Assembly (NCBI RefSeq): GCF_014648275.1
Contig: NZ_BMQU01000010.1
Coordinates: 124,001-188,000 of the forward strand
DNA length: 64,000 nt
Origin: Pseudomonas laurentiana
GTDB taxonomy: Bacteria > Pseudomonadota > Gammaproteobacteria > Pseudomonadales > Pseudomonadaceae
Direction: 5' to 3'
The first letter of the stretch is position 1. Every line of letters begins with the position of its first letter. The position numbers and the translations under genes are program-made. Shown piece by piece: positions 6,168 to 60,090 of this stretch. The notes below the pieces were generated by a model. The model was not told where the DNA came from and made no database searches. It saw only the letters and a program-made list of their open reading frames with translations.

Positions 6168-7210
6168 GCATTTTTCTCCAGCAGGCGCCAGCGCAGTTGT
6201 TCACCGGCGCGCAGCGGTACCACGGTGTGCTCGCCGAATGGCAGGCTATCCGGGGCGGTCCAGCTTTCGCGGACCAGGGTAATAGTGTCGGTATTGGTCG
6301 GCAGGCCATAGAACGCAGGACCATGCAGGCTGGCGAAACCTTCGAGTTTGTCCAGCGCGTTGCGCTGTTCGAAGGCTTCGGCATACAGCTCGATAGCGGC
6401 ATAGGCGGTGTAGCAGCCGGCGCAACCGCAGGCCGCTTCCTTGGCGTGACGTGCATGCGGTGCCGAGTCGGTGCCCAGGAAGAACTTGCTGCTGCCACTG
6501 GTGGCGGCATCAAGCAGGGCAACCTGGTGCGTATTGCGCTTGAGGATCGGCAGGCAGTAGTAGTGTGGGCGAATGCCGCCGACCAGCATGTGGTTGCGGT
6601 TGTACAGCAGGTGCTGGGCGGTAATGGTTGCACCGACATTGGCCGGCGCTTCAGTCACGAACTGCACCGCATCGGCCGTTGTAATGTGCTCAAAGACCAC
6701 TTTAAGCGTTGGGAAGCGCTCGACCACGCGGCGCATGTGTTCGTCGATGAACTGCTTCTCGCGGTCGAAGACATCGACCTCGCTACGTGTTACTTCACCG
6801 TGGACCAGTAGCGGCATGCCGACTTCAGCCATGGCCTCGAGCACCGGGAAGATATTGTCGATGCTGGTGACGCCCGAGTCCGAGTTAGTGGTCGCGCCCG
6901 CCGGATAGAGCTTGGCGGCGTGGACGAAACCGCTGGCCTTGGCCGTGCGGATTTCCTCGGGTTGGGTGCGGTCGGTGAGGTACAGGACCATCAACGGCTC
7001 GAAGCGGCTACCAGCCGGACGGGCCGCGAGGATACGTTCGCGATAGGCCCCCGCTTCGGCGGCGTTGCGCACGGGTGGTACCAGGTTTGGCATGATGATC
7101 GCGCGGGCAAAGGTGCGCGCCACATCGCCAACAGTGTGGGGCAGGACGGCACCATCACGAAGATGGATATGCCAGTCGTCAGGACGCAGAAGGGTCAGGC
7201 GGTCGGACAT
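6164..7210 (-). CDS. pyrC: Dihydroorotase, class II
   Basis: This 348-residue zinc amidohydrolase cyclises carbamoyl-aspartate to dihydroorotate in pyrimidine synthesis. DWHIHLRDG carries the metal-binding HxH near residue 12. [12 protein letters not shown] carries the carbamylated bridging lysine, and GTDSAPH carries the catalytic aspartate. I place the start at the ATG giving [12 protein letters not shown]; the frame extends nine codons upstream to a TTG without support. It heads a two-gene unit with rnt. Confidence 0.95.
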
Positions 7211-7341
7211 TGGGGATTCCAGGCGGGTCGAACTCAAGGTGAATGCTACCGGAAAAGCCGGGTCCGAGCACTCGCTATCAAGTTTTGCGGCGGCCTACCG
7301 ATACCTTGCAGGTATGCCGTGAAAAATTTGTGGAGCCGCCC

Positions 7342-8328
7342 GTGCGCCAGCATTATCTAGCCTTGCTCAGCATGTTTACCTGCCTGCCTGCCATGGCCCT
7401 GACGTTCCAGACTCGTCTGGAGAGCGTCGAGTGGAAGGTCGAGGGTGATCAGTTCGAGTGCCGATTGATCCAGCCGATTGCCAATTTTGGCTCTGGTGAG
7501 TTCGTTCGTCGTGCGGGTGAGCAGCCGACCTTCCAGTTGCGCTCGAACAGCAATGTCCTGGGCGCGGGTTCGGCAACCCTGCTTGCCGCTGCCGCGCCAT
7601 GGCAGCCAGGGCGTGGGGATATCAACCTGGGCACTGTTCGCATGGCCCGTAACGGCGTGTTGTTCAATAGCTCGCAGGGCCAGGCCAGCCGCCTGATCAA
7701 TGGCCTGCTGGATGGTCGCAGCACCGTGGTCCGCAATTATGCAGGGGAAGCGGGGCGTTCGATGGACGTGCGCGTGTTGCCGGTCAAGTTCAACCAGGCC
7801 TATGCTGACTATCAGGTCTGTGCGGCCAAGTTGTTGCCGATGAACTATGATCAGGTGCGCCAGACCCGCGTCGACTTTCCGGGCGGTGGGATCGACCTGG
7901 ATTCCAGCGCCCAAGCGCGACTGGATATCATCCTGGACTTTCTCAAGGCCGACCCGACCGTCAATCATATTGAGCTTGATGGGCATTCGGACAACAGCGG
8001 CAATCGCCTGACCAACCGTGACCTGTCCCGTCGTCGTGCGCTGGCGGTCATGGAGTACCTTAAACGTCACGGAGTGGCGGAAGAGCAGATCACCCTGCGG
8101 TTCCATGGTGAGCGGTACCCACTGGCACCGAACAACAGCCCAGCGAACCGTTCGCGCAATCGCCGGGTGAACATTCAACTGGACCGGGTGACGCCCGTTG
8201 AAAAACCGGTAGAAACTGCCAGTGACAAACCACTCGGCAAGGCGCCTGACGCGGCTTCGACAGCGCCGGCTCAGGCTCCGGCTCCGGCAGCCACCCCCTC
8301 CGTTACCAAGCCGGCCGTCAAGTCCTGA
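7342..8328 (+). CDS. motY: MotY-like flagellar T-ring protein, OmpA C-terminal domain
   Basis: The predicted 328-residue exported protein starts with a signal peptide (RQHYLALLSMFTCLPAMA). A MotY-specific N-terminal domain of about 150 residues follows. An OmpA-type peptidoglycan-binding domain then runs over roughly residues 175-290 (ARLDIILDFLKADPTVNHIE, GHSDNSGN, NRDLSRRRALAVMEYL, NRSRNRRV). MotY anchors stator units around the flagellar motor in Vibrio and Pseudomonas. I chose the GTG at 7342 because GGAG lies 6 nt upstream; earlier codons lack any signal. A Pro/Ala/Lys-rich tail of about 40 residues closes it. The position between pyrC and argG matches P. aeruginosa motY. Confidence 0.85.
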   Translation: MRQHYLALLSMFTCLPAMALTFQTRLESVEWKVEGDQFECRLIQPIANFGSGEFVRRAGEQPTFQLRSNSNVLGAGSATLLAAAAPWQPGRGDINLGTVRMARNGVLFNSSQGQASRLINGLLDGRSTVVRNYAGEAGRSMDVRVLPVKFNQAYADYQVCAAKLLPMNYDQVRQTRVDFPGGGIDLDSSAQARLDIILDFLKADPTVNHIELDGHSDNSGNRLTNRDLSRRRALAVMEYLKRHGVAEEQITLRFHGERYPLAPNNSPANRSRNRRVNIQLDRVTPVEKPVETASDKPLGKAPDAASTAPAQAPAPAATPSVTKPAVKS

Positions 8329-8361
8329 GGGGCGACCATCCGTCGCGCCCTCGACCGTTCC

Positions 8362-8403
8362 TGTCGCTTTGTCGTCACAAGCTGTCGCCCCACTGTAAAT
8401 GTT
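8362..8403 (+). promoter_or_regulatory. Tandem ArgR operator upstream of argG
   Basis: TGTCGC lies at 8362-8367 and again at 8383-8388, exactly 21 bp apart. The second is followed after 8 nt by AA (8397-8398), the first by CA (8376-8377). This is the TGTCGC-N8-AA-N5 tandem layout of Pseudomonas ArgR sites. The last base is about 55 bp before the argG start, suited to repression by arginine. Confidence 0.78.
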
Positions 8404-8457
8404 GCAGTAAGACCGGTAGAATCATCGGTTTTCCGTACAACCCCGTGGAGTGATGGC

Positions 8458-9675
8458 ATGGCGGACGTAAAAAAGGTCGTACTGGCGTATTCCGGCGGCC
8501 TTGATACCTCGGTAATTCTCAAGTGGCTGCAAGATACCTATAACTGTGAAGTGGTGACTTTCACCGCTGACCTGGGGCAGGGCGAGGAGGTCGAACCGGC
8601 CCGCGCCAAAGCTCAGGCCATGGGTGTCAAAGAGATCTACATCGACGACCTGCGCGAAGAGTTTGTCCGTGACTTCGTGTTCCCGATGTTCCGCGCCAAC
8701 ACTGTTTACGAAGGCGAGTACCTGCTGGGTACTTCCATTGCGCGTCCGCTGATTGCCAAGCGTCTGATCGAAATCGCCAACGAAACCGGCGCCGATGCCA
8801 TTTCCCATGGCGCGACCGGCAAGGGCAACGACCAGGTGCGTTTCGAGCTGGGTGCCTACGCGCTCAAGCCAGGTGTGAAGGTGATTGCGCCATGGCGTGA
8901 GTGGGACCTGCTCTCGCGTGAAAAGCTGATGGACTATGCCGAGAAGCACGCTATTCCAATCGAGCGTCATGGCAAGAAGAAGTCGCCGTACTCGATGGAC
9001 GCCAACCTGCTGCACATCTCCTACGAGGGTGGCGTGCTGGAGGATACCTGGACCGAGCACGAAGAAGACATGTGGCGTTGGACCAAGTCGCCGGAAAACG
9101 CGCCGGACGTCCCGACCTACATCGAGCTGACGTACCGTAACGGTGACATCGTTGCCATCGATGGTGTGGAAATGACGCCAGCCACCGTACTGGCAACCCT
9201 CAACCGCATCGGTGGTGAGAACGGCATCGGTCGTCTGGACATCGTCGAGAACCGCTATGTCGGCATGAAGTCCCGCGGTTGCTACGAAACCCCAGGCGGC
9301 ACCATCATGCTGCGTGCCCACCGCGCCATCGAGTCGATCACCCTCGACCGTGAAGTCGCTCACCTGAAAGACGAGCTGATGCCGAAGTACGCCAGCCTGA
9401 TCTACACCGGTTACTGGTGGAGCCCAGAGCGTCTGATGCTGCAGCAGATGATCGACGCTTCGCAGGTTAACGTGAACGGCGTCGTACGCCTGAAGCTGTA
9501 CAAAGGCAACGTGATCGTGACCGGGCGCAAGTCTGATGACTCGCTGTTCGATGCCAACATCGCAACCTTTGAAGAGGATGGCGGTGCTTACAACCAGGCC
9601 GACGCGGCGGGCTTCATCAAGTTGAACGCCTTGCGCATGCGCATTGCTGCAAACAAGGGACGCTCGCTGGTTTAA
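8458..9675 (+). CDS. argG: Argininosuccinate synthase
   Basis: This 405-residue ATP-dependent ligase joins citrulline and aspartate in arginine synthesis. The P-loop-like pyrophosphatase motif AYSGGLDTS lies at residues 10-18. [13 protein letters not shown] and [17 protein letters not shown] are family signatures. It is a single gene with its own terminator, and a tandem ArgR-type operator lies upstream. Together with argF it supplies two consecutive steps. Confidence 0.97.
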
Positions 9676-9691
9676 GCGTTCTCCTCGTTTG

Positions 9692-9721
9692 AAAAAAACC
9701 CGGCTTTGGCCGGGTTTTTTT
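9692..9721 (+). terminator. argG terminator
   Basis: The stem AAAAAAACCCGGC / GCCGGGTTTTTTT encloses a TTTG loop, 17 bp after the argG stop. It is symmetric and can also serve the convergent gene on the other strand. Confidence 0.93.
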
Positions 9722-9732
9722 ATTCATCGTTT

Positions 9733-10422
9733 TCATCGTTGTGCGTCTGTGCATGGTCGTGTCTTATTTGATGTGTGGGGCATGGGTTTATTGGTGATCG
9801 TCGTTTGAACACCAACATCGATATTGTAAAAGACCAACGATTCTCCACTGCCGTTGCTGGGTGAGAGCAGTGACTGCTTCAGTGCACTCAGTACGTGGTG
9901 TTCAACGAATTGATGTGCGCCGCTGCCGGATAGAAAAATGCTGGAGGGGGGCGTGTTATCCGGTAGTCCCGAACTGTTCGGCATGTTTATTGTGAATTCT
10001 AATCGTGCAAGCTTTTCGCTCAGCTCATTGAGCTTTTCATGTAGCGCACTATTGAGATCATCGCGATCACGCTCTCGTTTCTCCGTGCTCGTCGTTGAGT
10101 ATTCAGCTTTAGTGGATGGATAGTTTGTTAAGGGTTCTTCATCTCTGGATTTTTCGTGTGCTAAACCGTTTGGTGTTGCTGTTTCCTGTGAATATTCGGT
10201 GGGTGTTTCGCCGTTGTCGGGAATATAGAGCGATCGCGTGTTGAAGTTTAATGTAAGAAAGAAAAGTAGTGTCAGGAAGGGGGGGAACCCTACAAGAAAC
10301 CAGGTGTAAATTTCTTGGCTGTCTTCACCGAGAAATGGCAGGGAGGCCAGCGCAGAGGCCTCAATGATTCCGGCGAAGATAGCGATGATGGTCAACGGAC
10401 TTTTGGGTTCGGCGTTGCTCAT
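9733..10422 (-). CDS. Hypothetical membrane protein with coiled-coil tail
   Basis: I do not recognise this 229-residue protein. It has two hydrophobic helices, about residues 10-30 (LTIIAIFAGIIEASALASLP) and 40-59 (YTWFLVGFPPFLTLLFFLTL). A polar cytosolic-type region follows, with a short charged coiled coil around residues 115-145 (ERDRDDLNSALHEKLNELSE). The gene is visibly AT-richer than its neighbours and lies next to a long AT-rich non-coding stretch, which suggests acquisition or lower constraint. The start follows a possible AGGTACTG sequence. Its function is unknown. The product is probably real because the two helices and coiled coil are coherent, but homologues were not checked. Confidence 0.6.
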   Translation of the reverse strand: MSNAEPKSPLTIIAIFAGIIEASALASLPFLGEDSQEIYTWFLVGFPPFLTLLFFLTLNFNTRSLYIPDNGETPTEYSQETATPNGLAHEKSRDEEPLTNYPSTKAEYSTTSTEKRERDRDDLNSALHEKLNELSEKLARLEFTINMPNSSGLPDNTPPSSIFLSGSGAHQFVEHHVLSALKQSLLSPSNGSGESLVFYNIDVGVQTTITNKPMPHTSNKTRPCTDAQR

Positions 10423-10873
10423 GATTCAGTACCTTCTGCTCGTTTTGGCGGCGATACGTAAGGGGCCGCCATGGTCAGGAGGATCGCTCGGATTGTAGGT
10501 TTAAGTGGGTAATTATGTGTTGTTTCGGGTGCCGTGTAATGCTGCTGTACGGGTTGATTTTTAAAGAGTACTGCGCGTTTCTATTAATCTAAAGGCAGTA
10601 TGGGAAATTTCCTTCAACGATTGTGGCGTCGCTTCATAGGTTGCGACTTTGAATGATGATAGTGTTGTTTTACGGCGGATTTTACTTGCTTTTATTTTGG
10701 CAGGCGCTGCTGTTTCCTGGGTTTGGCATTAATAAAATTTGTAGGAATAATCCTATGATTTTGTAGGCCGTGTCTTTGAGTGTAAGTGCTTGACGGGGGC
10801 GGAATGCAATATTCCAGAGGGATGGGATATTGTGCGAGCTTAAGAACCGAACAGCAAAAATTTGGATTTGCCC
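10423..10873. other. AT-rich intergenic region
   Basis: This 451-bp gap lies between the divergent hypothetical membrane gene and the response regulator gene. It is much richer in A and T than the surrounding chromosome. No conserved product, tRNA or obvious hairpin with a T-run was seen. It presumably carries both divergent promoters. Confidence 0.5.
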
Positions 10874-11500
10874 ATGAATAAAGTGCTGATCGTGGATGAT
10901 CATCCAGTCATTCGCTTGGCTGTACGCATGCTGATGGAGCGGCATGGCTATGAAGTCATTGCGGAGACGGATAATGGTGTAGATGCACTGCAACTTGCCC
11001 GGGAATATCTTCCCGACATTGTTATTCTGGATATCGGAATCCCCAAGCTCGACGGGTTGGAGGTCATTACCCGGCTAGCCTCGGCCGGAGAGGCGTTGAA
11101 GGTTCTGGTACTGACGTCTCAAGCGCCTGGGCATTTTTCAATGCGTTGCATGCAAGCGGGGGCTGCCGGTTATGTTTGCAAGCAACAGGACCTGACCGAA
11201 CTCCTCAGTGCAATCAAGGCTGTGCTTTCTGGTTACAGCTACTTTCCCAATCAGGCATTGCATTCGGTTCGTTCCAACCTGGGAGGGGCGAGTGAGGCGG
11301 AGATGGTCGAGCGCCTTTCAGGTCGGGAGATGATGGTGCTGCAGCAATTGGCTCGCGGCAGGAGCAACAAGGAAATTGCCGACAGCATGTTCCTCAGCAA
11401 CAAGACGGTCAGTACCTACAAGACGCGTTTGCTGCTGAAACTCAATGCGCGCTCCCTGGTCGACCTGATTGAGCTCGCACAGCGTAACGATCTTGTATGA
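10874..11500 (+). CDS. LuxR/NarL-type orphan response regulator
   Basis: This 208-residue regulator has a receiver domain (residues 1-120) with acidic pocket D8-D9, phospho-acceptor D53 in VILDIGIPKLDG, a T/S switch in VLTSQA and a lysine in GYVCKQ. A LuxR-type helix-turn-helix follows at about 145-205 (LSGREMMVLQQLARGRSNKEIA, then NKTVSTYKTRLLLKL). It resembles BvgA/EvgA-like regulators. No histidine kinase gene is adjacent, so the partner is unknown. The ATG is used because the frame upstream begins at an unsupported TTG. It sits in an AT-rich pocket between argG and nth. Confidence 0.87.
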   Translation: MNKVLIVDDHPVIRLAVRMLMERHGYEVIAETDNGVDALQLAREYLPDIVILDIGIPKLDGLEVITRLASAGEALKVLVLTSQAPGHFSMRCMQAGAAGYVCKQQDLTELLSAIKAVLSGYSYFPNQALHSVRSNLGGASEAEMVERLSGREMMVLQQLARGRSNKEIADSMFLSNKTVSTYKTRLLLKLNARSLVDLIELAQRNDLV

Positions 11501-11546
11501 AACGCACTTCACTCTAGCTTCCCGCCAAGGACGCTTTTGGTAACAC

Positions 11547-11582
11547 ACTAATTGCCGCCCTGTTGATTGGGCGGCAATTAGT
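11547..11582. terminator. Hairpin between convergent genes
   Basis: ACTAATTGCCGCCC pairs perfectly over 14 bp with GGGCGGCAATTAGT around an 8-nt loop. It sits between the response regulator gene and the small PA3496-like gene, and touches the stop codon of the latter. There is no strong T-run on either side. Confidence 0.65.
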
Positions 11583-11764
11583 TAAAGATCGAAGTCATAG
11601 TCTGCCAGCTGTTTCTGCAAGCGACGCTCTTCCAGCAGGTTGTCAATGGTGCGGCGTTTACTCAGATTGGTCTTTGCTGTCTCCGCCGGTACATCAGCGG
11701 CGGGTGAGTCTTCAGTGGCAGCAAAGTCGTCGTCCAGATCCAGCTCTTCTTTATCGGTGCTCAT
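11582..11764 (-). CDS. Small acidic PA3496-family protein
   Basis: This 60-residue protein has an acidic N-terminal half (DKEELDLDDDFAATED) and a basic helix at the end (SKRRTIDNLLEERRLQKQL). It matches a small conserved Pseudomonas family typified by PA3496, which also sits beside nth and has been named a putative envelope-integrity protein. It has no signal peptide or membrane segment. The biochemical role is unknown. The start ATG is preceded by GGAGTGACTT, which contains a usable Shine-Dalgarno sequence. Confidence 0.75.
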   Translation of the reverse strand: MSTDKEELDLDDDFAATEDSPAADVPAETAKTNLSKRRTIDNLLEERRLQKQLADYDFDL

Positions 11765-11869
11765 AAGTCACTCCACGGCAAGAGGGCCATTGGCGCACCT
11801 TATAACCAGATTCTCAGGTCGGGTAAAAAAGATTTTTTCAATCGCCTGAACAACCTTTTCGCTATTTGC

Positions 11870-12508
11870 TCAATCGTCCGAAGTCTTGTGCTTGTAATCA
11901 CACAGGTCTTCGATCCGACAACTGCCACAACGCGGCTTGCGTGCCTGGCACACATAGCGACCGTGCAGGATCAACCAGTGGTGAGCATCCAGCAGGTAGG
12001 CCTTGGGTACAAACTTCAATAGACCCTTTTCAACCTCCAGGACGTTCTTGCCGGGTGCGATTCCTGTGCGGTTGCTGACGCGAAAAATATGGGTGTCGAC
12101 TGCCATTGCAGGCTGTCTGAAGGCAGTATTGAGGACCACGTTGGCAGTCTTGCGGCCCACCCCAGGCAGAGCTTCAAGGGCCTCGCGGGTTTCCGGGACC
12201 TGACTGCCGTGCTGCTCCACCAGTAATCGACAGGTTTCGATGACGTTCTTCGCTTTACTGTTGTACAGGCCGATGGTCTTGATGTACTCCGACAGCCCTT
12301 CCACACCTAATGCGTATATTGCTTCTGGCGTATTGGCCACCGGGAACAGGCGTGCAGTGGCCTTGTTGACCCCGACATCGGTCGCTTGTGCGGAAAGAAT
12401 GACCGCAATCAGCAGCTCGAACGGCGACGTGTAGGCAAGCTCGGTCTTCGGTTCTGGATTGTCTTCATGCAGCCTGCGAAATATTTCCAGGCGTTTTGTA
12501 GCATTCAT
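11870..12508 (-). CDS. nth: Endonuclease III
   Basis: This 212-residue DNA glycosylase/AP lyase removes oxidised pyrimidines in base excision repair. The helix-hairpin-helix is LPGVGRKTANVV at residues 114-125, with catalytic lysine K120, and D138 lies in VDTHIFR. A [4Fe-4S] cluster is held by C187, C194, C197 and C203 (C-X6-C-X2-C-X5-C). It is the last gene after rnfABDGE on the same strand, only 3 bp after rnfE. The rnf-nth linkage is widespread in gammaproteobacteria. Confidence 0.97.
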   Translation of the reverse strand: MNATKRLEIFRRLHEDNPEPKTELAYTSPFELLIAVILSAQATDVGVNKATARLFPVANTPEAIYALGVEGLSEYIKTIGLYNSKAKNVIETCRLLVEQHGSQVPETREALEALPGVGRKTANVVLNTAFRQPAMAVDTHIFRVSNRTGIAPGKNVLEVEKGLLKFVPKAYLLDAHHWLILHGRYVCQARKPRCGSCRIEDLCDYKHKTSDD

Positions 12509-55934: not shown

Positions 55935-56296
55935 AGTGCTCCACTCATTCTGTTGTATTTTTTATAGTCCTTGCGGCCAAAGCTACAGGACCGGATCAGG
56001 TTCTCCGTCGAGGCCACGCCTCGTACCGCAGACCCGAATTTCCCCGGCCTTACCCCCGGCAACTGTACCGGTACAGTGTAGAGCGCCGCTTTATCGATTG
56101 AAAAGCGGGCTCGCAGAGGCAAAACCTGGGTGCGTCGCTTAATTGACTTAAAGTTATAAAAAAGCGTCTTCGGTTTCGCCCTGTATGTCAGCAATCCCTG
56201 GCTTTTCCTGCACTCATCGATCAATTGGTTATTTGAAACTGGGTTTTTCTGCAAAAATACCGGCTTTAGTGGCCGAATTATTTCTGGTAGGAACCC
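55935..56296. other. braC leader and promoter region
   Basis: This 362-bp gap lies between divergent braC and the DUF2288 gene. It contains the palindrome at 56062-56077, a GC-rich leader on the braC side and an AT-richer part near 56140-56290 that probably carries promoters for both genes. No small gene is credible here. Confidence 0.5.
56062..56077. promoter_or_regulatory. 16-bp palindrome, operator-like
   Basis: ACTGTACCGGTACAGT is a perfect inverted repeat about 128-143 bp upstream of braC. It looks like a dimeric regulator site (GntR/MocR or TetR style). It is not a LexA box, since only 6 nt separate CTGT from ACAG rather than 8. The regulator is unknown. Confidence 0.45.
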
Positions 56297-56602
56297 ATGA
56301 CTGATGAAGTAAGCACCCTCTATGCCAAACTGCTCGGCGAGACCGCAGTCATTGAGTGGAAAGCGCTGGAGCGTTTTTGGGCCAAGGGTGACCTGATTTG
56401 GGTCAGCCCGACATTGGACCTGATCGCGGTTGCCGAGGTCATGGCCGAAAATCGAGGAGAAGCCTTTGCTGCATGGCATGCCGAGGGCACCGTCTGCAAA
56501 CTCTCTGCTGAGCAGGCGCTAGACCTTCAGACGCGAGATCCACAGATCTGGGCGGTGGTGGTTTCACCCTGGATCGTGATTCAGGAAAAACCTGCGCCCT
56601 GA
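56297..56602 (+). CDS. DUF2288 family protein
   Basis: This 101-residue soluble protein is nearly all one domain: LYAKLLGETAVIEWKALERFWAKGDLIWV, then LDLIAVAEVMAENRGEAF and VVVSPWIVIQEK. This matches the small DUF2288 family found in Pseudomonas and cyanobacteria. No catalytic motif is apparent and the role is unknown. The start has AGGAAC upstream. It is convergent with the tubulin-like gene. Confidence 0.85.
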   Translation: MTDEVSTLYAKLLGETAVIEWKALERFWAKGDLIWVSPTLDLIAVAEVMAENRGEAFAAWHAEGTVCKLSAEQALDLQTRDPQIWAVVVSPWIVIQEKPAP

Positions 56603-56777
56603 TTTGGTGCGCAAAAATGCACAGTGGTTAGCAATTGGTGCGCGGTACTGTTCAGAGGGGGTGACCCTTGGTAACAGTTCAGCGAGGTGAAGGGGCATCG
56701 GTAACAGTCTGCACCGATGGATAGGCGCAGCGGGGAGGGCAATGTAGCCCCGTGCAGCGAGTGACACTGTGCTGATC

Positions 56778-56800
56778 GGGCGCCGGCAAGGCCGGCGCCC
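56778..56800 (-). other. GC-rich hairpin
   Basis: GGGCGCCGGC pairs perfectly over 10 bp with GCCGGCGCCC around an AAG loop, 14 bp past the tubulin-like gene stop. It has no T-run. It may be the end of that transcript or a REP-like element. Confidence 0.5.
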
Positions 56801-56814
56801 TGTTGACGGGGATC

Positions 56815-58998
56815 TCAGTAATCAACCTTGCCCGTATGGGTGTTGAGGGAGATAACCCGTGTCTTGCCAATCCGGTGACGGTAAATTTCTCGCAGGTATT
56901 TCACCGCTTTCTTCACGCATTCGCGTGAAAGCCGGATGTCGTTGATCGAGACAAACTTGCTCTTGTCATTGATCAGTTCGCGGTACTTCTTCTCATACAT
57001 CGGTTTGATCGCGTACCAGTTGGTATCGAGGATCTTGGCTGGATTCTCGAACTCGTTGAGCAACTCATCGATGTGGTCTTCGTCAAAGTGATCGCTGGTG
57101 ATGAAGTCGAGCATGGCGTTGTCCAGCGTATCGTCGAAACGGTACGGGTTACGCGCGAAGCAACGCTTGATGAAGGCGACGATCAGTGTCAGGAAATCGT
57201 CTGACAGGCACGGGCTCTTGGCGATCAGGGTGGTCAGCGACAGGTTGGCGGAAGCGCCGATGACCAGTGCGTAACGCTTGAGCGTGGTGTTGGGGAACAG
57301 GCTGTTGAGGTGCGTCTTGAGCCGGTTCAGGTCCATGTACGAGAGCTTGTAGTCTTTGGGCAGCGAGACGATCGAGACCACCGAAGAGCAGTTCTTGAAG
57401 AAATGCAGGTCGTGCAGGGCTGCAGCGTCATAGCCAGAGGTCTTGTACTGCTCCAGGGCCGCACGGTAGCGCTTGGACTCGATCGGCAAGAGGCTGATGC
57501 CCTCAATGGCCTGGGTCTGCTTGTTGAAGTGTGGCAGGTCGATAGAGCGGAAAAACAGGTCGTCGATGTCCAGACGAGGCTGCTCTTTTTCGAACACTTT
57601 GAACTTGTCCGAGCTCTGGGCTGGCTGTTCTGGCACGACGGACTCGGCGTAGGCAATGGCGACTGGGCCTGCCAGGCTCATGAACAGGTCGTTGGCATCC
57701 AGGCGGATGGTTTCGCCGATATCGATACCGGCACGACGGAAATAGGCCTGGTCGTAGTCGGTGGTCACCGCCTGGGCGGTCAGAATGTTGAAGATCTGCT
57801 GCGAGATGTACTGGTTGGCGTGTTTTTCCATCGCATTGACATCAATGTTCTGGATGGTGCCGTCATCGCTTTCTTCGGCATAACGCATGATGTCGTTGGA
57901 GATCAGCATCATTGCGTTCCAGGGGCGAATACGGCCCATGACGCTGGCTTCGCTGCTGTCTTCATTGTCGAAGTTGTAGGAGAAGTCCCACTCTTCTGAG
58001 AGATATTTGCACAGCAAGCGTCCGGCGTTGATATGCAGGGCCTCGGACATCTCACTACGGTGGTCGGAGATATTCGGCAGTACGCAGATGCCACTGGTGA
58101 AGATTGGCTCGAAGACGAACGAGTGTCCGCTCTTGCCGTCATTCTCGTCAGCCGGTTTGGTGTCGAATGTTTTGTTCATGTAGGAGTACTGCTGGGCCAG
58201 GCCGAACTCCGACGCCATGCCCGAGCCGGTACCACCGCCGGCGCTGAAGATGTAGAAGTACAGGCGCGACTGGTTGGCCTTGATGCCACAGGAGTCGATC
58301 AGGTACGAATGGATCAGTTTCCAGTCTGCGCTGGAGAAACGCTGGGTTTCCTTGTTCAGGATGATCTTCGCCAGGTACTGACCCAGGATCGGTGCGTTAC
58401 CGGCACCACCGGCATGAACCTCGGACAGGTCCATGATTTTCATTTTGCTGTAATCGCGGATAAAACCGCTGGTTTCGCCTTTGCGCGAGAAACGGATGCG
58501 TCCGGCGATATCCTTGTCCAGGTCACCCAGCATTACCAGTGGCTCAACCAGGAACACCGGCTTGCTGCTTTTGTTCTGTACCAGGCGCAAGTTGTTGCGG
58601 ATCCAGCGTGCAGGGCTGTAGCTCACGTCATTGCTGACCCTCTCCTCGTTGTTGAACTCATTGAGGTAGAAGGTGCGAGCGTTGTAGACCAGTTCTGCAA
58701 CATCCAGAGCGATGTTCGAGCCGCAACGGCCTAGGCCGATCAGGCAGACCGACGGGAACTGCTGATCGAGGCGCAGTTGGTTCTCGTCTTCCTGATGTGG
58801 GCTCGGCGGAAAAACCAGATCCCGCAGGCCGTCGAGGTTGTCGAGGATGCGCTGGATATCGGTTTCGGTGTAGTACAGGTACTGCTGTGGGTTGAGCGTT
58901 CGTGTGCCGTAGTATTCCCTAGGCCCTGTAGCTGTGTACGTGGCAGTAGACGACATCAGTTCGGAAACCACATTGGCAGGAGTGTTCTTGGAAGTCAT
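56815..58998 (-). CDS. Tubulin/FtsZ-superfamily protein (Tubulin_2-like), large
   Basis: This 727-residue cytosolic protein carries a tubulin-type GTPase domain over about residues 83-450. The first loop is CLIGLGRCGSNIALD (85-99), T3-like GGAGNAPILG lies at 197-206, and the tubulin signature GGGTGSG lies at 254-260. A beta strand with SND follows at 367-369, then IRLDANDLF at 431-439. There D434 and D437 align with the catalytic T7-loop aspartates of FtsZ. About 280 C-terminal residues have no recognised domain. No signal peptide or clear membrane helix is seen. It stands alone between the DUF2288 gene and an oxidoreductase gene. Polymerisation and GTPase activity are inferred, not shown. 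Confidence 0.85.
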   Translation of the reverse strand: MTSKNTPANVVSELMSSTATYTATGPREYYGTRTLNPQQYLYYTETDIQRILDNLDGLRDLVFPPSPHQEDENQLRLDQQFPSVCLIGLGRCGSNIALDVAELVYNARTFYLNEFNNEERVSNDVSYSPARWIRNNLRLVQNKSSKPVFLVEPLVMLGDLDKDIAGRIRFSRKGETSGFIRDYSKMKIMDLSEVHAGGAGNAPILGQYLAKIILNKETQRFSSADWKLIHSYLIDSCGIKANQSRLYFYIFSAGGGTGSGMASEFGLAQQYSYMNKTFDTKPADENDGKSGHSFVFEPIFTSGICVLPNISDHRSEMSEALHINAGRLLCKYLSEEWDFSYNFDNEDSSEASVMGRIRPWNAMMLISNDIMRYAEESDDGTIQNIDVNAMEKHANQYISQQIFNILTAQAVTTDYDQAYFRRAGIDIGETIRLDANDLFMSLAGPVAIAYAESVVPEQPAQSSDKFKVFEKEQPRLDIDDLFFRSIDLPHFNKQTQAIEGISLLPIESKRYRAALEQYKTSGYDAAALHDLHFFKNCSSVVSIVSLPKDYKLSYMDLNRLKTHLNSLFPNTTLKRYALVIGASANLSLTTLIAKSPCLSDDFLTLIVAFIKRCFARNPYRFDDTLDNAMLDFITSDHFDEDHIDELLNEFENPAKILDTNWYAIKPMYEKKYRELINDKSKFVSINDIRLSRECVKKAVKYLREIYRHRIGKTRVISLNTHTGKVDY

Positions 58999-59202
58999 TG
59001 TGTGCCGTGTGCCTTGGGGAGGTGGCTGTTCAAAGGGGACATCGCAGTGTACTCACGTAATGGGGGTGCGAGTTTAGTCGCGAGCCTTTTGCATGAGTGC
59101 TGGGCGTTTCCCTAAAACTCTGTAGGTAAATTTTCCGTTTACGCTTGCATTCTTGATCGTCCAATCGCGCAACTTCTTTAATCAAAACTTCTGGAGCGTT
59201 AC

Positions 59203-60090
59203 ATGAGTGTCGCATTACCTTCGTTGGGGTTTGCTGGTATCGGTCTGATGGGGTTGCCGATGTGTAAGCGGCTTTTGGCTGCTGGCTACCCGTTGATGGT
59301 GTGGAATCGCTCACCCGAAAAGTGTGCAGAGCTGGTTGCCGCGGGGGCTCGCCTGGCCACTACACCTGCCGAATTGTGCCAGTACGCCGACGTCGTGATG
59401 CTGTGTTTGGCCGACACCGCAGTGGTCCGCGAGGTTGTTTTTGGTGAGAACGGCGTGGCCAGTGGTGCCAGGGCCGGTCAGCTACTTGTGGATTTCTCCA
59501 GCCTTGAACCAGGTGCTACCCGCGAAATGGCTGCCGAGCTGGCAGCGCTTAAAGGCATGAGTTGGTTGGACACTCCCGTGTCGGGAGGTACGCCAGGCGC
59601 GGAGGCGGGCACGCTGGCGATCATGGTCGGAGGCGCTGCGCAGGATCTGGCGAGGGTGCAGCAGGTTTTACTGACCTTGGGCCAGCGTGTTACCCATATG
59701 GGGCCGGTGGGAGCAGGGCAGGTAACCAAGGCGTGCAATCAGATGATCGTGGCCTGCAATGCGTTGGTGATCGCTGAAGTGGTGGCGCTGGCGGAGCAGT
59801 CTGGTGTTGATGCAAGCCTCATTGCCGAAGCCCTTGCTGGCGGTTTTGCCGACTCCAAACCCTTGCAGATTCTTGCACCGCAAATGGCCGGCAGCCACTT
59901 TGAACCGGTCAAGTGGCATGTGCGCACTTTGCTCAAAGACCTTGATACTGCCGTCAAGTTTTCGCGTGAACAGGGTTCAGCGACACCCATCAGCGGGCTT
60001 GCTGCCCAATTGATGCGTCTGCATGGTAGTCAGGGGTATTTGCAAAAAGATCCGGCAACACTTGTGCAGATGTATCGGCGCAAGGACTGA
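59203..60090 (+). CDS. Beta-hydroxyacid dehydrogenase family NAD(P)-oxidoreductase
   Basis: This 295-residue enzyme resembles 3-hydroxyisobutyrate and tartronate-semialdehyde dehydrogenases. The N-terminal Rossmann motif is GFAGIGLMGLPMCKRL. The substrate motif DTPVSGGTPGAEAGTL lies near residue 125, and GAGQVTKACNQM, with the catalytic lysine, near residue 180. KDLDTAVKFS is the family C-terminal motif. Its substrate is not determined. It has its own GGAGCG ribosome site. Confidence 0.9.
   Translation: MSVALPSLGFAGIGLMGLPMCKRLLAAGYPLMVWNRSPEKCAELVAAGARLATTPAELCQYADVVMLCLADTAVVREVVFGENGVASGARAGQLLVDFSSLEPGATREMAAELAALKGMSWLDTPVSGGTPGAEAGTLAIMVGGAAQDLARVQQVLLTLGQRVTHMGPVGAGQVTKACNQMIVACNALVIAEVVALAEQSGVDASLIAEALAGGFADSKPLQILAPQMAGSHFEPVKWHVRTLLKDLDTAVKFSREQGSATPISGLAAQLMRLHGSQGYLQKDPATLVQMYRRKD

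What the first reader, a model, noticed from the sequence alone, without database searches (positions are those of the whole stretch)
56815..58998. Large stand-alone tubulin/FtsZ-superfamily protein
The gene encodes a tubulin-type GTPase domain with GGGTGSG at residues 254-260, a G1-like loop, a T3-like loop, and D434 and D437 matching the FtsZ T7 catalytic aspartates. It is much larger than FtsZ, with about 280 extra C-terminal residues, and sits apart from division genes. Both catalytic and nucleotide elements being kept suggests an active polymer-forming GTPase with an unknown cell role.
Basis: partly seen in the sequence, partly recalled or inferred. Interest (0 to 1): 0.8.

Follow-up and report, generated by a model that had tools for sequence, protein, structure and literature searches.

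The report
Known orphan bacterial tubulin relative, FtsZl2
The gene is the local copy of FtsZ-like 2, a tubulin-related protein described from sequence in 2010 whose job in the cell is still unknown; it is common and tightly conserved in Pseudomonas, so it is ordinary as a find but a good target for an experiment.

Summary
The ORF at 56815-58998 (-) is real: 727 aa, GGGTGSG at 254-260, D434 and D437 as stated. It carries tubulin/FtsZ loop motifs in order (T1 88-95, T3 198-203, T4 254-260, T6-like 367-369, T7 433-437). It is almost certainly the ortholog of PFL_1302, type member of the FtsZ-like 2 (FtsZl2) family of Makarova & Koonin 2010, who already reported the motif, the ~300-residue C-terminal region and the lack of linked genes. 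In a P. protegens genome only FtsZ and this ortholog carry the motif in a tubulin-like ORF. Added here: it matches in 99 of 149 sampled genomes of its genus; it sits beside DUF2288 and liv genes in 79 of 80 listed Pseudomonas-type loci; five motifs are kept in 131 of 131 copies examined; dN/dS is 0.016-0.11; no plasmid or phage match. The genome has a conventional FtsZ elsewhere. GTP-dependent polymerisation is plausible but unshown: two AlphaFold jobs failed (pLDDT about 32) and profile comparison does not support the T6-T7 segment. Known family, unknown function.

The parts
56815..58998 (-). FtsZl2 gene, 727 aa, tubulin/FtsZ-superfamily protein
   Evidence: ORF and translation; orthologs in 80 listed loci of 564 and 99 of 149 genomes of the genus
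58714..58737 (-). T1-like loop GLGRCGSN, residues 88-95
   Evidence: kept as G[LF]GRCGSN in 131 of 131 loci
58390..58407 (-). T3-like loop GAGNAP, residues 198-203
   Evidence: not among the motifs counted
58219..58239 (-). T4 signature GGGTGSG, residues 254-260
   Evidence: 131 of 131 loci
57892..57900 (-). T6-like SND, residues 367-369
   Evidence: 131 of 131 loci as L[IV]SND; assignment to T6 is by position and resemblance only
57688..57702 (-). T7 loop LDAND with D434 and D437, residues 433-437
   Evidence: LDANDLF in 131 of 131 loci
56818..57687 (-). C-terminal region, residues 438-727, no recognised domain
   Evidence: no Pfam match above cut-off; no match to the FtsZ C-terminal domain by hhalign
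59175..59182 (-). ATTAAAGA in the 204-base gap to the divergent dehydrogenase gene (58999-59202), invariant in 18 of 18 aligned loci
   Evidence: no sigma-70-like site found in 56200-59400; function unknown

Best explanation
The gene is an ortholog of the published FtsZ-like 2 (FtsZl2) family, an orphan branch of the tubulin/FtsZ superfamily carried on proteobacterial chromosomes. Shown from sequence: the nucleotide-loop motifs and the T7 aspartate pair are present, in order and strictly conserved, and the gene holds a fixed place in Pseudomonas, appears once per genome and is under strong purifying selection. Inferred from established FtsZ/tubulin mechanism: the protein binds GTP in the T1-T6 pocket and assembles head to tail, so that the T7 aspartates of one subunit complete the active site of the next and GTP hydrolysis drives turnover. 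The inserts between T1 and T7 and the 290-residue tail would set a filament form or partner binding specific to this family. The role is probably an accessory organising or scaffolding job other than division, because conventional FtsZ is present and about a third of the sampled genomes of the genus show no copy.
For: ORF and motifs. PF13809 and PF00091 are the two best Pfam matches of the protein and the only two families matched at E <= 1 by all 17 of 17 diverse members (best E 9.7e-4 and 2.1e-4). hhalign against 31 FtsZ sequences places T3 and T4 in register, P = 0.0045-0.0076 for segments that include them. Five motifs kept in 131 of 131 loci. dN/dS 0.016-0.110 against 8 of the 80 listed loci. 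Own FtsZ elsewhere. Fixed locus in 79 of 80. Present in 99 of 149 in the genus, 11 of 12 in family f242, one of these broken, and 29 of 48 in family f207. Family description read in PMC2875224, parts 1 and 2 of 5. P. protegens FD6 has only FtsZ and this ortholog as tubulin-like ORFs with the motif.
Against: Neither tubulin-type Pfam match reaches its cut-off for the window protein, and the PF00091 stretch covers only residues 247-264. NCBIfam gives nothing. PDB sequences give no significant match (best E 0.4, to a cytochrome P450) and none with the profile. hhalign probability is only about 5-8% (the family is shallow, Neff 1.6). The segment 360-450, with the T6-like and T7 motifs, does not align sensibly to FtsZ (P 0.063), and the C-terminal region shows no detectable FtsZ C-domain (P 0.34-0.61). 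Both AlphaFold models are uninformative. No GTPase or filament data were found in the paper searches.
Confidence: 0.6

Rival explanations
1. A tubulin-fold GTP-binding protein that has lost polymerisation and acts as a soluble switch or regulator, with the long C-terminal region as the effector part.
For: Large inserts between T1 and T7 (154 residues more than FtsZ, counted) and an unrecognised C-terminal region could block protofilament contacts; no consistent partner gene lies nearby outside Pseudomonas.
Against: The T7 aspartate pair, which in FtsZ and tubulin serves the neighbouring subunit, is kept in 131 of 131 loci, which would be unexpected if no subunit contact were used.
Confidence: 0.25
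2. A mobile-element or phage-related tubulin (TubZ or PhuZ type) stranded in the chromosome.
For: Patchy presence within the genus (99 of 149) and absence at the same locus in some species.
Against: No match in 72,556 plasmid or 50,697 phage records; no relative found in IMG/VR with the patterns tried (the one pattern hit is a 167-aa ORF with a chance match); fixed position in 79 of 80 listed loci.
Confidence: 0.03
3. Not a tubulin relative: GGGTGSG and D..D are convergent motifs in an unrelated conserved protein.
For: Pfam scores of the window protein are below curated cut-offs, PDB searches give nothing significant, the T6-T7 segment does not align to FtsZ and the structure jobs failed.
Against: Two tubulin-type Pfam models are the only families matched by all 17 of 17 members; T3 and T4 fall in register with FtsZ; T1, T6-like and T7 motifs follow in order; independent HHpred E = 0.0033 in the 2010 paper.
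Confidence: 0.07

Closest known systems
FtsZl2 (FtsZ-like 2) family, type PFL_1302 of P. fluorescens Pf-5 (Makarova & Koonin 2010, PMC2875224)
   Same: GGGTG(S/T)G motif, T1/T4/T6/T7 kept, about 300 aa C-terminal region of no known similarity, no family-wide linked genes, proteobacterial; the P. protegens FD6 ortholog is 89% identical (L070).
   Different: Nothing found that sets it apart; it is a plain ortholog.
FtsZl1 / Pfam Tubulin_2 (PF13809)
   Same: Weak match to PF13809 over residues 197-369.
   Different: Below the curated cut-off; none of the vWA, kinase or OmpA genes that PMC2875224 gives for FtsZl1 seen among its window neighbours (read by eye); T7 is identifiable here, whereas the paper could not identify T6-H7 in FtsZl1.
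FtsZ
   Same: Order of T1, T3, T4, T6-like and T7 motifs.
   Different: 331 residues longer, separate locus from ftsZ, no match in 50 of 149 sampled genomes of the genus, no detectable FtsZ C-domain.
TubZ / PhuZ (plasmid and phage tubulins)
   Same: Superfamily only.
   Different: Chromosomal, fixed locus, no plasmid or phage relatives found.
BtubA/BtubB
   Same: Superfamily only.
   Different: One gene, no second tubulin beside it, metabolic neighbours.

Membership tests
FtsZl2 | GGGTG(S/T)G signature | tested here: met
   Residues 254-260; 131 of 131 loci
FtsZl2 | Other nucleotide-domain motifs kept (T1, T6, T7, helix H7) | tested here: met
   As sequence motifs: order matches own FtsZ, T1, T6-like and T7 in 131 of 131 loci. 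Not confirmed by structure: H7 could not be checked because the models failed, and hhalign of residues 360-450 gave P 0.063
FtsZl2 | About 300 aa C-terminal region without known relatives | tested here: met
   290 residues after T7; no Pfam family over cut-off, none to the FtsZ C-domain
FtsZl2 | C-terminal region is not a coiled coil | not tested
   No coiled-coil program was run
FtsZl2 | No conserved linked genes across the family | tested here: met
   Within Pseudomonas the address is fixed, but in 7 loci from five other families (L156-L161, L165), and in L163 of the window's genus, those neighbours are absent. Only GGDEF-EAL proteins (L158, L161; 27% identical) and ABC ATPases recur across families
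FtsZl2 | Orthology to type member PFL_1302 | tested here: inconclusive
   PFL_1302 itself was not in hand; in P. protegens FD6 the only tubulin-like ORFs with the motif are FtsZ and this ortholog. That Pf-5 is now called P. protegens is recalled
FtsZl2 | Restricted to Proteobacteria | tested here: inconclusive
   Whole-genome searches covered only its own phylum; 80 of 564 hits in genome contigs were listed, 79 titled Pseudomonas and one Paucimonas
FtsZ | PF00091 match over the curated cut-off | tested here: not met
   19.8 bits against 33
FtsZ | The universal division gene of the genome | tested here: not met
   A normal FtsZ is present elsewhere; 50 of 149 genomes of the genus show no match to this gene
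FtsZl1 / Tubulin_2 | PF13809 match over the curated cut-off | tested here: not met
   18.9 bits against 27
FtsZl1 / Tubulin_2 | vWA / kinase / GTPase / OmpA operon | tested here: not met
   Window neighbours are DUF2288, a 3-hydroxyisobutyrate-dehydrogenase-like protein and a periplasmic binding protein, further liv transport genes and RapA (named by eye translations)
TubZ / PhuZ | Encoded on a plasmid or phage | tested here: not met
   Fixed locus among chromosomal genes; no plasmid or phage match
BtubA/B | Paired tubulin genes | tested here: not met
   One match in the own genome; one match in 98 of the 99 matching genomes, the other (G1174) being one gene in two pieces
Tubulin/FtsZ superfamily | Tubulin fold | tested here: inconclusive
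   AlphaFold2 models at pLDDT 31.8 and 32.7

The most novel reading that the evidence does not exclude
A GTP-driven filament with a non-division role, encoded by about two thirds of the sampled species of the window's Pseudomonas genus and by other proteobacterial families, that no experiment found here has described: a whole cytoskeletal system overlooked in a model genus, whose filament form is set by inserts and a C-terminal region unlike those of FtsZ or tubulin.
Probability: 0.45. Interest if true: 0.75.

Novelty: already known. Interest (0 to 1): 0.36.

Why it matters
The family was named in 2010, and the searches made here found no functional study under that name or locus tag (PMC open-licence library only, no preprints). 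A chromosomal tubulin relative kept under strong selection in most sampled species of a tractable genus makes the question of what a second tubulin does in a rod that already has FtsZ directly testable, with species that lack it as natural controls.

Tried and rejected
Structure: AlphaFold2 on the full protein with 36 Pseudomonas orthologs and on residues 81-455 with 73 orthologs both gave pLDDT near 32, so no fold search was run on them.

Profile comparison: hhalign of the family against own FtsZ alone found a 19-residue T1 stretch (P 0.027). Against 31 FtsZ sequences it found the T3-T4 stretch (P 0.0045-0.0076), but residues 360-450 gave P 0.063. I suspected by eye that residues 538-595 copy the FtsZ C-terminal domain; hhalign gave no support (P 0.34-0.61 for the C-terminal segments), so I dropped the claim.

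Viral origin: the search for related loci and two motif patterns in IMG/VR gave one hit, a 167-aa ORF with a chance motif.

Operon or partner: the neighbours scanned in more distant loci were ammonium transporter-GGDEF-EAL, PAS-GGDEF-EAL, L,D-transpeptidase, Ppx/GppA, PhyH, ABC-transporter, chorismate-binding, MFS, TIM-barrel, sensor-kinase and TonB-receptor types, and three without a match. Across families only GGDEF-EAL proteins (L158 and L161, 27% identical) and ABC ATPases recur, both very common kinds, so I do not read them as partners.

Promoter: no sigma-70-like site in 56200-59400.

Literature: the term FtsZl2 hits PMC2875224 and PMC7327170; in the second it is part of the mutant name FtsZL272E (passages). 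PFL_1302 occurs only in PMC2875224. PMC9871819 (passages only) excludes the Tubulin_2 group from its main trees. Other searches were seen as capped listings; none of the listed titles or abstract openings is a study of this family apart from PMC2875224.

Full report
What is there. The minus-strand ORF 56815-58998 starts with ATG and encodes 727 aa. GGGTGSG lies at 254-260 and aspartates at 434 and 437. The genome's own FtsZ (396 aa, contig C14, beside an ORF that looks like ftsA) shows the same order of motifs: T1 at 18 against 88 here, T3 at 70 against 198, T4 at 106 against 254, T6 at 165 against 367, T7 at 209 against 433 (SND occurs a second time at 122). From these positions, the surplus of 331 residues over FtsZ divides into 70 before T1, 154 from T1 to T7 and 107 after T7. 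Loop names and roles are recalled from FtsZ/tubulin biology and taken from PMC2875224.

Is it a tubulin relative? The two best Pfam matches are PF13809 (E 9.7e-4, residues 197-369) and PF00091 (E 1e-3, residues 247-264), both below their cut-offs. They are the only families matched at E <= 1 by all 17 of 17 members of a diverse alignment; the next is matched by 3. Profile-profile comparison with 31 FtsZ sequences puts T3 and T4 in register (P 0.0045-0.0076 for segments that hold them, probability 5-8%). Against this: the segment 360-450 with the T6-like and T7 motifs gave P 0.063 and no sensible alignment, and the C-terminal segments P 0.34-0.61. There was no match in NCBIfam or PADLOC, one insignificant PHROGs row (E 0.12), no significant PDB match (best E 0.4; none with the profile), and two AlphaFold2 jobs gave pLDDT 31.8 and 32.7, which say nothing about the fold. 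The published HHpred result for the type member was E = 0.0033 to PF00091. Taken together I hold superfamily membership as very likely from sequence, with the fold untested.

It is a described family. Makarova and Koonin (Biol Direct 2010, PMC2875224; parts 1 and 2 of 5 read) searched for GGGTG(S/T)G and defined FtsZ-like 2 from PFL_1302 of P. fluorescens Pf-5. They gave all nucleotide-domain motifs kept, a C-terminal region of about 300 aa without known relatives, no associated genes, and members in Proteobacteria only. In the P. protegens FD6 genome the motif pattern gives four DNA hits, of which only two lie in tubulin-like ORFs: FtsZ and the ortholog of this gene. PFL_1302 is therefore almost surely this ortholog. 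I did not have its sequence, and that Pf-5 is P. protegens is recalled.

How it is kept. Of 149 sampled genomes of the genus, 99 have a match, two of these in part or in pieces (G1166 covers residues 381-727; G1174 is split). In other sampled sets it was in 20 of 38 relatives, 2 of 369 in the class, 23 of 390 in the order and 9 of 398 in the phylum. Those five sets overlap and each includes the window's own genome. It was in 11 of 12 of family f242 (one of them broken) and 29 of 48 of family f207. In the 80 loci listed out of 564, among the eleven window genes used as queries, DUF2288 and livK come next to the gene in 79; the exception, L068, is a 6.5 kb contig that ends 0.6 kb past the gene. 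RapA lies on the other side in 73; the other 7 have only 3.4-5.5 kb of upstream flank. The dehydrogenase gene is there in 63. Of 18 genomes without the gene, all 18 have DUF2288. I took the stretch from 9 of these 18, and all 9 keep DUF2288 beside livK. In L147 and L151 the site is simply empty, with about 175 and 194 bases between neighbouring matches. L148, L149 and L152 hold other genes there. In the loci from five other families (L156-L161, L165) and in L163 of the same genus none of the window's neighbours was found. Across families only GGDEF-EAL proteins and ABC ATPases recur nearby, both very common kinds.

Constraint. dN/dS against 8 of the 80 loci is 0.016-0.110. T1 (L or F at one place), T4, T6-like (I or V at one place) and T7 motifs and a C-terminal NTTLKRYALV are kept in 131 of 131 member loci, 127 of them distinct over the last 640 residues. 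Members were picked up in that script by the T4 region, and no locus was missed. Left out of the count: the window's own L001 and L102, the second copy L110 and the pieces of the broken copy (L125-L127; L208 and L209). Matches that were not fetched were not examined. Of the first 40 residues only 3 are invariant among 37 Pseudomonas-type sequences. No copy was found on plasmids or phages or, with the patterns tried, on viral contigs.

How it may work. By the FtsZ/tubulin mechanism (established knowledge), GTP bound between two subunits is hydrolysed when T7 of the next subunit arrives, so strict conservation of both the pocket and T7 argues for subunit-subunit contact. That is inference. A non-polymerising switch is the main rival. 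A division role is unlikely because FtsZ is present and a third of the sampled genomes of the genus show no copy. Mobile-element partition is unlikely from its address. I cannot name the cargo or partner.

Verdict. The find is a plain ortholog of a family published in 2010, for which the searches made here found no functional study (other listings were capped and only titles and abstract openings were seen). The distribution, synteny and constraint data are modest additions.

Noticed in passing
L166 (G1113) 6890-9730: In one genome of family f242 the FtsZl2 gene is in pieces with stop codons and an unassigned 210-aa ORF between them, while 10 of the 11 other genomes searched in that family have an intact-looking copy.
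   Followed up: partly
window 59175-59182: ATTAAAGA is invariant in 18 of 18 aligned upstream regions, also in the two loci of that set that lack the divergent dehydrogenase gene (L050, L060), although no sigma-70-like site was found.
   Followed up: no
L148, L149, L152 between RapA and DUF2288: In species without FtsZl2 this interval holds MFS-transporter-like ORFs, MHYT-GGDEF-like ORFs (L149, L152) and, once (L152), an IS110-like transposase (named by eye), so it is a mild variable spot.
   Followed up: no
L039: A metagenome-assembled genome titled Paucimonas sp. carries a copy 92% identical with the Pseudomonas-type DUF2288-liv neighbours, so its title is probably wrong.
   Followed up: no
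L158 4568-7630 (-): Next to FtsZl2 in a distant genome (f207) lies a 1020-aa fusion of ammonium transporter, PAS, GGDEF and EAL domains; in L161 (f51) a PAS-GAF-GGDEF-EAL protein lies one ORF away.
   Followed up: partly
window 10001-12000: G+C dips to 0.50 against 0.575-0.595 in the adjoining blocks; the stretch holds a small membrane-type ORF (9733-10422) and a response-regulator-like ORF at 10862-11500 (named by eye).
   Followed up: no
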